A stretch of 33,408 nt of DNA, from positions 1-33,408 of the forward strand of contig NZBM01000005.1 in NCBI GenBank assembly GCA_002687905.1, in the 5' to 3' direction. Each line of letters opens with the position of its first letter. Position 1 is the stretch's first letter. This document shows positions 12,501 to 22,842 of this stretch, in pieces. Position numbers and translations under genes: made by a program. Source of the stretch: a bacterium. Lineage in GTDB: Bacteria; Patescibacteriota; Minisyncoccia; Phycocordibacterales; JABMNX01. The notes below the pieces were generated by a model, which was given only the letters and a program-made list of their open reading frames with translations, was not told where the DNA came from and searched no databases.

Positions 12501-13712
12501 ATGAGACAAGTTCAACCAGACGTGGAGGCATTTGCAAGAATCAGAGTCGTTGGAGTCGGTGGCTCTGGGGGAAATGCCATAAACCACATGATTGACTCCA
12601 AAGTTAAAGGAGTTGATTTTATTGCTATTAATACTGACGCACAAGATCTTCACCACTCAAGCGCTAAGAAAAAGATTCACGTTGGTAAAAACCTAACTCG
12701 CGGCCTTGGTACTGGAATGAATCCAGAACTTGGTAAGCGTGCGGCAGAAGAAACTAAAGAAGAACTGCAAGAAGCTCTCAAAGGTTCAGATATGGTCTTT
12801 GTAGCTTGCGGAATGGGTGGAGGAACAGGAACTGGCGCAGCTCCTGTGGTAGCAAAGACTGCAAAAGACGCTGGCTCACTTACTGTAGCTGTTGTAACGA
12901 AACCGTTTTCGTTTGAAGGACAGCAAAGGATGCGGCTTGCTGAACAAGGTCTTGAGGAACTTAAGCGAGAAGTTGATGCGCTTATTGTAATACCTAATGA
13001 CCGCTTGCTTGCTGTAGTTCAGCGAGAAACTTCTGTAGCAAACGCTTTTGCGATGTGTGATGACATACTAAAGCAAGCTGTTGAAGGTATTTCAGACCTT
13101 ATTACAACTCCTGGAATCATTAACGTTGACTTTGCAGACATCCGCTCAGTTATGGACTCTGCAGGCTCAGCCCTTATGGGAATAGGTCTTGCTACAGGCG
13201 AGAAGCGAGCCGAAGAAGCGGCACATGCTGCCATTAGTTCTCCTCTCCTTGAGATCTCAATTACAGGAGCAAAAGGAGTTCTGTTTGCAGTCGCTGGAGG
13301 TGACGATCTATCAATGCTTGAGATTCAGGACGCAGCAAAGGCAATTACTGAATCTATTGACCCGAATGCAAAGGTTATCTTTGGAGCTGTTAAAGACACC
13401 AAGCTTAAGAAAAATGAGGTTAAGGTTACTGTTATTGCTACAGGCTTTCCAGAAGGAGCTGCAAGTCAGAAAAGCTCAACGCTATTCCAGCTAAATAAAA
13501 AAGAAGAAGATAAGGAATCAAAGGACGTAGTAGAGAAAAAGCCTGCTGGTAGAAAGATCTACAATACTCTGTCTGCCGCTACTCCGGTTATTACGCCAAA
13601 GATAGAGGAAAAGAAAAAAGAAGATGAAGATAAAGACAAGAAAGACGACGATGGCGGCGATGACGATTGGGGCGCGGTTCCCGCATTCTTGAGAAGATCG
13701 AAACTTAAGTAG
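12501..13712 (+). CDS. ftsZ: Cell division protein FtsZ
   Basis: 403 aa; GVGGSGGNAINHM, GMGGGTGTGAAPVVA tubulin signature, C-terminal VPAFLRRSKLK. Confidence 0.98.
   Translation: MRQVQPDVEAFARIRVVGVGGSGGNAINHMIDSKVKGVDFIAINTDAQDLHHSSAKKKIHVGKNLTRGLGTGMNPELGKRAAEETKEELQEALKGSDMVFVACGMGGGTGTGAAPVVAKTAKDAGSLTVAVVTKPFSFEGQQRMRLAEQGLEELKREVDALIVIPNDRLLAVVQRETSVANAFAMCDDILKQAVEGISDLITTPGIINVDFADIRSVMDSAGSALMGIGLATGEKRAEEAAHAAISSPLLEISITGAKGVLFAVAGGDDLSMLEIQDAAKAITESIDPNAKVIFGAVKDTKLKKNEVKVTVIATGFPEGAASQKSSTLFQLNKKEEDKESKDVVEKKPAGRKIYNTLSAATPVITPKIEEKKKEDEDKDKKDDDGGDDDWGAVPAFLRRSKLK
13675..13711 (+). repeat. 37-bp direct repeat, copy 1 (3' end of ftsZ)
   Basis: cggttcccgcattcttgagaagatcgaaacttaagta, identical to 13886-13922. 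Confidence 0.97.
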
Positions 13713-13760
13713 TTTTGAATATTTAACGAACCGCGTCCCAATGGGGCACAAAGCGTTAAG

Positions 13761-13785
13761 GAAAAACACCCCTGCGGGTGTTTTT
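13761..13785 (+). terminator. Terminator after ftsZ
   Basis: gaaaaacacccctgcgggtgtttttc. Confidence 0.85.
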
Positions 13786-13813
13786 CTAGCTTTGTGAGGC
13801 GGAGTCATGTCGT

Positions 13814-13885
13814 GAATACTTGGAACGACAGACGAGCCCGGGCAGGAGGCACCTTCCCGCTGTGGCGGGATTGGTGACCTGACGC
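13814..13885 (+). other. Structured element copy A: target-complementary segment (13814-13826) plus core GACAGACGAGCCCGGGCAGGAGGCACC...GGUGACCUGACGCC
   Basis: Shares GGGCAGGAGGCAC...GTGACCTGACGCC with copies B and C. Confidence 0.75.
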
Positions 13886-13922
13886 CGGTTCCCGCATTCT
13901 TGAGAAGATCGAAACTTAAGTA
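13886..13922 (+). repeat. 37-bp direct repeat, copy 2 (displaced ftsZ 3' end)
   Basis: Identical to 13675-13711. Confidence 0.97.
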
Positions 13923-15202: not shown

Positions 15203-15203
15203 G

Positions 15204-15275
15204 TGACCCCACGGGGAATTGAACCCCGATTTGCAGAATGAAAACCTGCTGTCCTAACCATTAGACGATGGGGCC
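15204..15275 (-). tRNA. tRNA-Glu (UUC)
   Basis: Minus strand ggccccatcgtctaatggttaggacagcaggttttcattctgcaaatcggggttcaattccccgtggggtca; anticodon loop TTTTCAT. Confidence 0.95.
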
Positions 15276-15420
15276 GAGAAATAGCATATGCTATTCAACG
15301 GCAATTTATTTTACTGCCCGGCAGGTTTTCAGAAAACCTGCCTATTCCCTCATCTCCATTCGGAAATTCGCTCGCTTTGCTCGCGACCGGATGGAAACTC
15401 CCGTTTCCATTCCATACCCA

Positions 15421-15436
15421 TTAGACGATGGGACCT
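15421..15436 (-). pseudogene. Partial tRNA-Glu 5' fragment upstream of the complete tRNA-Glu
   Basis: Minus strand CCCATCGTCTAATGG (15 nt identical to the tRNA-Glu 5' half). Confidence 0.7.
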
Positions 15437-15443
15437 GTTTTAG

Positions 15444-15542: not shown

Positions 15543-15626
15543 GGAGGAGTGCCCGGAATTGGTAACGGACCGCTCTCGAAAAGCGACGGGTGCAAGCCCT
15601 TGTGGGTTCGAGTCCCACCTCCTCCG
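15543..15626 (+). tRNA. tRNA-Ser (CGA)
   Basis: ggaggag...ctcctcc acceptor stem, anticodon loop CTCGAAA, long variable arm, T-arm gtgggttcgagtcccac. Confidence 0.92.
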
Positions 15627-15681
15627 CAATGATTCGCAAGGATAGCGTCAGCTATAGGAGCGAATTATCAATGCATGAAGT

Positions 15682-15804
15682 GAGGTGGGATTCGAAAGAC
15701 GGACCCAGCACCTAACGCGTTAGGTGCTGGGGAGTCCGGGCAGGAGCCACTTATCAAAAACCTTACGATATATCGTAAGGTTTTTGGTTTAGTGACCTGA
15801 CGCC
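15682..15804 (+). other. Structured element copy B: target-complementary segment (15682-15696) plus core (15697-15804)
   Basis: gaggtgggattcgaa complementary to tRNA-Ser 15607-15621; core almost identical to copy C; followed by displaced cgagtccc. Confidence 0.85.
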
Positions 15805-16011
15805 GAGTCCCCCGACCACCTGCCCGGCCAGTGGACAGACCTCCGTTGGTACTTTCGAGCCGGCAAGGCACTGATTTGCCTTCGGTTCGGCCAGAACGGC
15901 TCTCGCGTAGAGCTCCCAGTCCGCCTTGCAACTAGGGTACACCACCTCGATCCCTGCGATCGCTCTGCTCGAGACCAAGAGAATGGCCAACAAAATGCCA
16001 AGAGTTCTCAT
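15763..16011 (-). CDS. Small secreted hypothetical protein; C-terminus runs into element B
   Basis: 82 aa; signal peptide MRTLGILLAILLVSSRAIAG; good upstream promoter; last ~12 codons lie in the repeat element. Confidence 0.6.
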   Translation of the reverse strand: MRTLGILLAILLVSSRAIAGIEVVYPSCKADWELYARAVLAEPKANQCLAGSKVPTEVCPLAGQVVGGLGVRSLNQKPYDIS

Positions 16012-16109: not shown

Positions 16110-16131
16110 TCTCCCCTATTGGGCGGTTAGC

Positions 16132-16429
16132 CCCTCACCCAGAAATGGATTTGAGCTATGTATTACGTGTATCTTTTAAAAAGTAAGAAAGACGAGAGTT
16201 TGTATATTGGATATACTAACGATCTCAAAAGGCGTTTTGAAGAACATAACAACGGGGAAAACAAATCCACTAAATTCAAAACTCCTTTTGAGCTCGTATA
16301 CTATGAATCGTATAGAGCTCGGTCAGACGCTAAGATACGTGAGCAGGCGTTGAAAAAACACGCACAAGCATACACGACTCTTAAGCAAAGAATAGCCAAT
16401 AGTCTGACCTAACCCATTTCTGGGTAGAG
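16132..16429 (+). mobile_element. Candidate ~298-bp mini-element: GIY-YIG ORF bounded by 12-bp inverted repeats, between 11-bp direct repeats of the tRNA-Val 5' end
   Basis: IRs acccagaaatgg (16137-16148) / ccatttctgggt (16414-16425); DRs gggcggttagc (16121-16131 and 16430-16440). Confidence 0.7.
16158..16412 (+). CDS. GIY-YIG nuclease domain protein (UPF0213-like)
   Basis: 84 aa; YYVYLLKSKKDESLYIGYTNDLKRRFEEHNNG. Confidence 0.92.
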   Translation: MYYVYLLKSKKDESLYIGYTNDLKRRFEEHNNGENKSTKFKTPFELVYYESYRARSDAKIREQALKKHAQAYTTLKQRIANSLT

Positions 16430-16503
16430 GGGCGGTTAGCTCAGTTGGTTAGAGCGCATCATTGACGTTGATGAGGTCACAGATTCGAATTCTGTATCGC
16501 CCA
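16430..16503 (+). tRNA. tRNA-Val (GAC)
   Basis: gggcggttagctcagttggttagagcgcatcattgacgttgatgaggtcacagattcgaattctgtatcgccca; loop TTGACGT. Confidence 0.95.
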
Positions 16504-22582: not shown

Positions 22583-22655
22583 GCTCAGGTAGCTCAGTTG
22601 GTAGAGCACTTGTCTGAAGAACAAGGGGTCGCCGGTTCGAGACCGGCCCTGAGCA
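22583..22655 (+). tRNA. tRNA-Phe (GAA)
   Basis: gctcaggtagctcagttggtagagcacttgtctgaagaacaaggggtcgccggttcgagaccggccctgagca; loop CTGAAGA. Confidence 0.96.
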
Positions 22656-22694
22656 CAAGATGAATTCGGGCATGAGTTGCCCGTATTTCATTTT

Positions 22695-22817
22695 GAGGCT
22701 GGTCTCGAAAGACGGACTCAGCACCTAATGCGTTAGGTGCTGGGGAGTCCAGGCAGGAGGCACTTACCAAAAACCTTACGATATATCGTAAGGTTTTTGG
22801 TTTAGTGAGCTGTCGCC
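22695..22817 (+). other. Structured element copy C: target-complementary segment (22695-22709) plus core (22710-22817)
   Basis: gaggctggtctcgaa complementary to tRNA-Phe 22636-22650; core nearly identical to copy B; followed by displaced cgagaccgcccccaagcacaa. Confidence 0.85.
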
Positions 22818-22842
22818 GAGACCGCCCCCAAGCACAAATTAA

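What the first reader, a model, noticed from the sequence alone, without database searches (positions are those of the whole stretch)
15682..15811. Target-complementary segment that changes with the insertion site
Immediately 5' of each core is a segment complementary to that copy's own host gene. Copy B gaggtgggattcgaa pairs with tRNA-Ser ttcgagtcccacctc (14/15 plus one G-U). Copy C gaggctggtctcgaa pairs with tRNA-Phe ttcgagaccggccct (12/15, with a 9-nt contiguous run). Copy A gaatacttggaac pairs imperfectly with ftsZ ggttcccgcattc (one bulge). The displaced 3' duplicate also pairs with this segment, so each element has a basal stem whose sequence differs between copies but stays complementary. 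This is guide/target-like or EBS/IBS-like logic, or it could come from foldback or template-switch insertion.
Basis: partly seen in the sequence, partly recalled or inferred. Interest (0 to 1): 0.88.

Follow-up and report, generated by a model that had tools for sequence, protein, structure and literature searches.

The report
Tail-restoring folded elements with target-complementary arms
Parcubacteria carry a family of tiny gene-less mobile elements that sit in the last bases of tRNA and housekeeping genes, rebuild the gene end they interrupt, and hold a stretch complementary to exactly that target, which hints at base-pair-directed insertion not described in any source I could search.

Summary
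The three window copies belong to a family found in 120 of 297 genomes of one Parcubacteria order, with 13 matches in this genome. Each unit is: gene tail H, usually a hairpin, segment c, a folded core of about 110 nt, then the displaced original tail H'. The core pairs covary strongly (16 of 18 with two-sided changes). Segment c is the reverse complement of the target from position -3 across the insertion point. It beats shuffled pairings for tRNAs and also tracks codon differences at rplE, clpP and ftsZ, so T-arm self-complementarity does not explain it. The duplication ends at the gene end, not at a fixed length, and empty ftsZ sites exist, so these are tail-restoring integrative elements. 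Both ends carry a 3-nt 'guide' beside a hairpin foot, as in IS200/IS605 single-strand transposition, but no recombinase is linked to the family, so the enzyme and single-strand mechanism are inferred.

The parts
15543..15627 (+). copy B host gene tRNA-Ser(cga); insertion point between 15609 (TTC) and 15610
   Evidence: ARAGORN; boundary from alignment with H' and with other copies
15610..15627 (+). copy B: H, the gene tail inferred to be carried by the element, start of the unit 15610-15804
15628..15681 (+). copy B: hairpin-bearing spacer L (sequence not conserved between copies)
15682..15696 (+). copy B: c, complementary to the target from -3 to +12
15697..15804 (+). copy B: folded core (hairpins 1 and 2), right end of the element
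   Evidence: R1 96.8 bits; covariation; fold z-score -6.8
15805..15822 (+). copy B: H', displaced and partly decayed original tRNA-Ser tail
13676..13711 (+). copy A: H, 36-nt ftsZ tail now in the gene; unit 13676-13886
   Evidence: exact duplicate at 13887-13922; empty sites in relatives
13747..13796 (+). copy A: extra hairpin CACAAAGC...GCTTTGTG between arm and core
   Evidence: R1 74.8 bits
13887..13922 (+). copy A: H', original ftsZ tail followed by the native downstream sequence
22639..22656 (+). copy C: H, tail of tRNA-Phe; unit 22639-22817
22695..22709 (+). copy C: c, complementary to the tRNA-Phe T-loop region
22710..22817 (+). copy C: folded core
   Evidence: R1 84.9 bits; fold z-score -8.5
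22818..22836 (+). copy C: H', displaced original tRNA-Phe tail

Best explanation
A family of non-autonomous integrative elements (unit about 180-210 nt in the window copies, no ORF in most) that insert into the ends of tRNA, tmRNA and conserved protein genes. The element carries a working copy of the gene tail (H), so the gene is restored and the old tail (H') is displaced downstream. The element folds: H and the inverted arm c form one hairpin, and the core forms hairpins 1 and 2. The last 3 nt of c, at the 5' foot of hairpin 1, pair with the 3 host bases just left of the cut. The last 3 nt of the element pair with 3 nt near the 5' foot of hairpin 2. I propose that these two short pairings, helped by the long c:target pairing, place the two cleavage points on one strand, much as the guide sequences of IS200/IS605 elements do, and that the enzyme is supplied in trans. 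Shown: anatomy, covariation, target tracking, tail replacement, insertion polymorphism. Inferred: action as single-stranded DNA, guide function of c, enzyme in trans.
For: Core covariation: 16 of 18 pairs with two-sided changes, 97.3% of cells paired, score 0.587 against 0.196 shuffled. c complementary to -3..-1, which H' lacks, in 88/86/82% of tRNA copies; with target triplets other than TTC, 21 of 30 match all three bases, shuffled mean 1.7, maximum 8 of 5000. Gapped alignments start exactly at -3 in 42 of 60. rplE in three genera: CTTC/CTGC/TTGC in the gene, GAAG/GCAG/GCAA in c. The duplication ends at the gene end: median +1 nt past tRNA ends, at the stop region for ftsZ (36 nt) and clpP (22 nt). 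H and H' differ as independent versions of one tail: rplE LPLQKPTE* and LPLQKEEEVK*, with the empty relative G576 ending LPLQKEEKETA*. Empty ftsZ sites with conserved synteny in G003-G005 and others. Right-end triplet pairs with near hairpin-2 foot in 98.3% of cells, all three pairs covarying. G.U share of core pairs 2.0% against 5.9% in 120 tRNAs of the same loci, which leans to DNA. Published IS200/IS605 rule: tetranucleotide guide 5' to each hairpin foot pairs with left flank and with the right terminus (PMC6006769).
Against: No enzyme is linked to the family. Y1 transposase (PF01797) co-occurs only weakly (odds ratio 2.09, p=0.0036, not corrected for relatedness); 34 core-bearing genomes have none at E<=0.001, and no core lies near 32 Y1 loci. 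No excised circle or mobility was observed. Single-strand action rests on low G.U content only. The long c:target pairing has no counterpart in IS200/IS605.
Confidence: 0.45

Rival explanations
1. Integron-like recombination: a tyrosine recombinase, possibly the single host Xer, acts on the folded strand. [quoted passage not shown]
For: Nearly every genome has a tyrosine recombinase, often exactly one Xer-like. c and H' are inverted repeats around a folded core, as in attC (PMC3053210). Units can stand in tandem.
Against: No GTTRRRY/RYYYAAC boxes at the boundary; none of 297 genomes matches the integron integrase model at E<=1e-60, though the control set was silent too. G110 (one contig) has 4 cores and no PF00589 match. 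Targets share no sequence that a protein could read.
Confidence: 0.2
2. The complementarity of c is mainly a by-product: H-hairpin-c is a quasi-palindrome that is made and kept matched by foldback or template-switch synthesis, so c follows H without being a guide.
For: Some copies are near-perfect palindromes through the terminator (L133). c follows H, not H', where they differ (fusA, ftsZ of G001). Complementarity can run to -10 at ftsZ.
Against: Does not explain why c meets the core exactly 3 nt past the cut in most copies, the covarying core, or insertion at the same gene points in different genera. It explains upkeep better than movement.
Confidence: 0.2
3. An RNA-level mobile element: the transcript folds, c acts as an internal guide like P1/P10 or EBS, and the element moves by reverse splicing or an RNA-guided enzyme.
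For: c would splint the left exon end and the right exon start, as an internal guide does. No resident recombinase explains the distribution.
Against: About half of tRNA copies have a terminator-like hairpin plus T run between the gene and c (36 of 74). Low G.U share. No reliable Rfam match. No ORF in the small copies, and no reverse transcriptase was seen.
Confidence: 0.1
4. Attachment-site remnants of islands with a large serine recombinase.
For: Two large insertions at the same tRNAs carry such a recombinase (L191, 12 kb; L192, 6 kb).
Against: Their shared ends are CCCTGCA and TCCACA at the tRNA 3' terminus, so they look nested between H and L. Co-occurrence with the core is nil (odds ratio 0.93, p=0.79). 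30 other recombinase loci have no core within about 1.5 kb.
Confidence: 0.05

Closest known systems
IS200/IS605 (Y1 HUH) elements and their non-autonomous or REP relatives
   Same: Hairpins near the ends; a short guide at the 5' foot of each hairpin pairs with the left flank and with the right terminus (PMC6006769); gene-less copies dependent on an enzyme in trans.
   Different: No fixed target tetranucleotide, a guide arm extended to 8-29 nt that changes with the site, a carried gene tail, both hairpins at one end, no Y1 gene in or near any copy, whole element confined to gene ends.
Integron attC sites and cassettes
   Same: Folded inverted-repeat site whose base pairs across the boundary; units can stand in tandem.
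   Different: No GTTRRRY boxes, no integron integrase found, base stem specific to each target, extra hairpin making a three-way junction.
Integrative elements that restore tRNA or gene 3' ends (tyrosine or serine integrases)
   Same: Insertion in T-loop or gene tail, restored gene, displaced original tail.
   Different: A few hundred bases, no integrase, and an inverted copy of the tail with a conserved folded core.
Group I P1/P10 and group II EBS/IBS guide pairing; IS110 bridge RNA
   Same: Target chosen by base pairing to a segment of the element that spans the insertion point.
   Different: No intron core, no intron or IS110 protein in the element, tail duplication, signs of DNA-level folding.

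Membership tests
IS200/IS605 elements | guide at hairpin foot pairs with left flank, and a second guide pairs with the right terminus | tested here: met
   3-nt version at both ends
IS200/IS605 elements | fixed target tetranucleotide | tested here: not met
   TTC, TGC, TCC, GTT, CGT, CTT, GGC, GAC, CAT and others
IS200/IS605 elements | Y1 transposase in the element, or in an autonomous relative with the same ends | tested here: not met
   weak co-occurrence only; no R1 match at 32 Y1 loci
IS200/IS605 elements | single-stranded circular intermediate | not testable with these tools
   needs excision assay
Integron cassette/attC | GTTRRRY core site at the boundary | tested here: not met
   boundaries are GCC|GATTCC and the like
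Integron cassette/attC | integron integrase in the genome | tested here: inconclusive
   0 of 297 at E<=1e-60, control genomes silent too; the own-genome recombinase is Xer-like
Gene-3'-end integrative elements | element restores the gene tail and displaces the original one | tested here: met
Gene-3'-end integrative elements | encodes its integrase | tested here: not met
   small copies have no ORF for one; two serine recombinases are in nested islands
Group I/II introns | catalytic intron core | tested here: not met
   no Rfam match at gathering threshold in the window; none in five relatives at E<=5
IS110/IS1111 | IS110 transposase next to the bridge RNA | not tested
   small copies hold no ORF of that size; genome-wide presence was not searched

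The most novel reading that the evidence does not exclude
A distinct class of mobile DNA whose target is set by an arm of 8-29 nt in the element that base-pairs with the target across the insertion point, while the element also carries the replaced gene tail: guide-directed, tail-restoring integration of folded single-stranded DNA.
Probability: 0.35. Interest if true: 0.93.

Novelty: new variant of a known kind. Interest (0 to 1): 0.8.

Why it matters
If c directs insertion, this is a natural system in which a change of a short complementary arm, together with the carried tail, moves an element to a new gene end: target choice by base pairing without any gene in the element. The tight 3-nt rule at both ends and the covarying core give concrete predictions. 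It also explains duplicated tRNA and gene tails at many Parcubacteria loci, and shows C-terminal tails of essential proteins (L5, EF-G, FtsZ, ClpP) being swapped by mobile DNA.

Tried and rejected
Large serine recombinase as mobiliser: looked right at L191 and L192, but the islands are nested and do not co-occur with the core. GIY-YIG nuclease as partner: one such ORF lies near copy B, but almost no other core locus has one. TnpB omega RNA: one weak Rfam hit, sot2652, in one of five loci only; no constant motif flanks the target. Fixed-length target duplication: rejected because the duplication ends with the gene. Phage origin: four pattern scans of viral contigs, no match. A 'GGTTCTAACRTC' motif near several copies was first taken for a second recombination site; by translation it is the end of serine-recombinase genes. 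Literature searches found no description of the family; only open-licence papers are held. Core mis-anchoring: most exceptions to the 3-nt rule look like chance anchors, but I did not remove them.

Full report
WHAT WAS CLAIMED. For copies B (tRNA-Ser) and C (tRNA-Phe) the segments and counts are right. For copy A (ftsZ) the chosen segment is the loop of the first core hairpin; the true arm is 13725-13742, 14 of 15 plus one G.T against 13666-13680.

THE FAMILY. The core motif occurs many times in this 591-kb genome, mostly just after tRNA genes. An alignment of 19 cores folds into two hairpins with compensatory change in 12 of 18 pairs. A covariance model (R1) finds it in 120 of 297 genomes of the order, in 81 of 165 genera, 13 matches in this genome, but in only one genome outside the order in a phylum-wide sample of 290. 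Public records with an exact core match that carry a lineage name are Parcubacteria/Patescibacteria. On 122 matches, 97.3% of cells pair, 16 of 18 pairs show two-sided change, and the covariation score is 0.587 against 0.196 shuffled and at most 0.088 for slid versions. The alignment was fitted to the model, so these counts lean towards the structure; the first 19-sequence alignment was not.

ANATOMY. Reading along the gene: gene up to the insertion point; H (gene tail); spacer L, usually with a hairpin; c; core; H' (second copy of the tail). Of the matches, 88 have a tRNA within 330 nt upstream, most with the insertion in the T-loop after TTC. A second set is inserted at the tRNA 3' end, for example CAC|AAACGC and GGC|ACAATGG. 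Other hosts are tmRNA, ftsZ, clpP, rplE (confirmed as L5), fusA and a comM-like gene (the last three gene names except L5 rest on reading the translated tails).

COMPLEMENTARITY. c against H': 7.63 of 10, shuffled 5.61 +- 0.11. Restricted to one T-loop class and to H' positions 5-12: 5.35 of 8, shuffled 4.12 +- 0.14. c against the target in the gene, gapped: 24.95, shuffled 13.85 +- 0.45; 42 of 60 alignments begin exactly 3 nt left of the insertion point; up to 29 nt match; the own c is the best of 60 for 33 targets. The 3 left bases are not in the element, and H' lacks them: they match c in 88, 86 and 82% of copies, against 1 and 9% for the two outer positions before H'. Where the target triplet is not TTC, 21 of 30 copies match all three bases, shuffled mean 1.7, maximum 8 in 5000. 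Protein genes settle the T-arm worry: at rplE the codons CTTC, CTGC and TTGC of three genera face GAAG, GCAG and GCAA in c; at clpP of two genera GTCGATG faces CATCGAC and CATCGACG faces CGTCGATG; at ftsZ of G002 and G001, GTGC and GCGC face GCAC and GCGC.

INTEGRATION, NOT FIXED TARGET-SITE DUPLICATION. The duplicated stretch starts at the insertion point and ends with the gene: median 1 nt past tRNA ends, 36 nt at ftsZ, 22 nt at clpP. H and H' can be different versions of the same tail: in G001 both encode VPAFLRRSKLK* with many synonymous differences; in G165 L5 now ends LPLQKPTE* while H' encodes LPLQKEEEVK*, like the empty relative G576 with LPLQKEEKETA*. ftsZ has the element in G000, G001 and G002 and an empty site with the same downstream gene in others. 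So H came with the element and H' is the original. At fusA and at ftsZ of G001, c matches H and not the diverged H', so c travels with H or is kept matched to it.

SEARCH FOR AN ENZYME. Large serine recombinases lie in two big insertions, but those share only the tRNA 3' terminus at their ends and appear nested in an older element; across 297 genomes they do not co-occur with the core (85/35/128/49, p=0.79). Most core-bearing genomes have one tyrosine recombinase, Xer-like here. Y1 transposases co-occur weakly (86/34/97/80, p=0.0036, uncorrected), with no core near 32 Y1 loci. No viral contig matched. The mobiliser is unknown.

HOW IT MOST LIKELY WORKS. The last 3 nt of c, one base from the foot of hairpin 1, pair with the 3 host bases left of the cut; the last 3 nt of the element pair with 3 nt on the 5' side of hairpin 2, 98.3% of cells and all three pairs covarying. 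This is the geometry described for IS200/IS605: a guide 5' to each hairpin foot pairs with the left flank and with the right terminus (PMC6006769). Only 2.0% of core pairs are G.U against 5.9% in tRNAs of the same loci, which leans to folded DNA. I therefore favour single-strand strand exchange by an enzyme in trans, with c as target-pairing arm. Defining features of IS200/IS605 that were tested and not met (fixed tetranucleotide, linked Y1 gene) mean that I do not file it there. The strongest rival for the complementarity itself is upkeep by foldback synthesis of a quasi-palindrome.

LIMITS. Boundaries in decayed copies are approximate. Shuffle tests do not remove relatedness between copies. 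The co-occurrence tests ignore phylogeny. Other tRNAs in these genomes have similar tail duplicates with cores that R1 does not detect or scores weakly, so the family is probably wider than counted.

Noticed in passing
window 16121-16440: A small GIY-YIG ORF (about 16158-16412) is flanked by direct repeats GGGCGGTTAGC (16121-16131 and 16430-16440, the tRNA-Val 5' end) and inverted CCCAGAAATGG/CCATTTCTGGG: possibly a separate element inserted at a tRNA 5' end.
   Followed up: partly
window 15203-15440: Part of tRNA-Glu (CCATTAGACGATGGG) is repeated about 160 nt away, perhaps another tRNA-end insertion.
   Followed up: no
L191:7810-19792 and L192:13660-19815: Serine-recombinase islands of about 12 and 6 kb inserted at the 3' terminus of tRNA-Trp and tRNA-Ala, inside older elements of this family; L199, L191 and others keep only the end of such recombinase genes.
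   Followed up: partly
L232, L240, L242, L245, L250: Further tRNA tails duplicated 140-300 nt downstream with cores that R1 misses or scores weakly, so more core types exist.
   Followed up: no
L058:4920-5385 and core hairpin 2 of copies B and C: The palindrome TACGATATATCGTA flanks an ORF that looks like a small HTH regulator and also forms the tip of core hairpin 2 in this genome; it may be a protein-binding site.
   Followed up: no
G000 contig ends C1, C6: Some contigs end inside element copies, so assembly breaks at this repeat and copy number may be underestimated.
   Followed up: no
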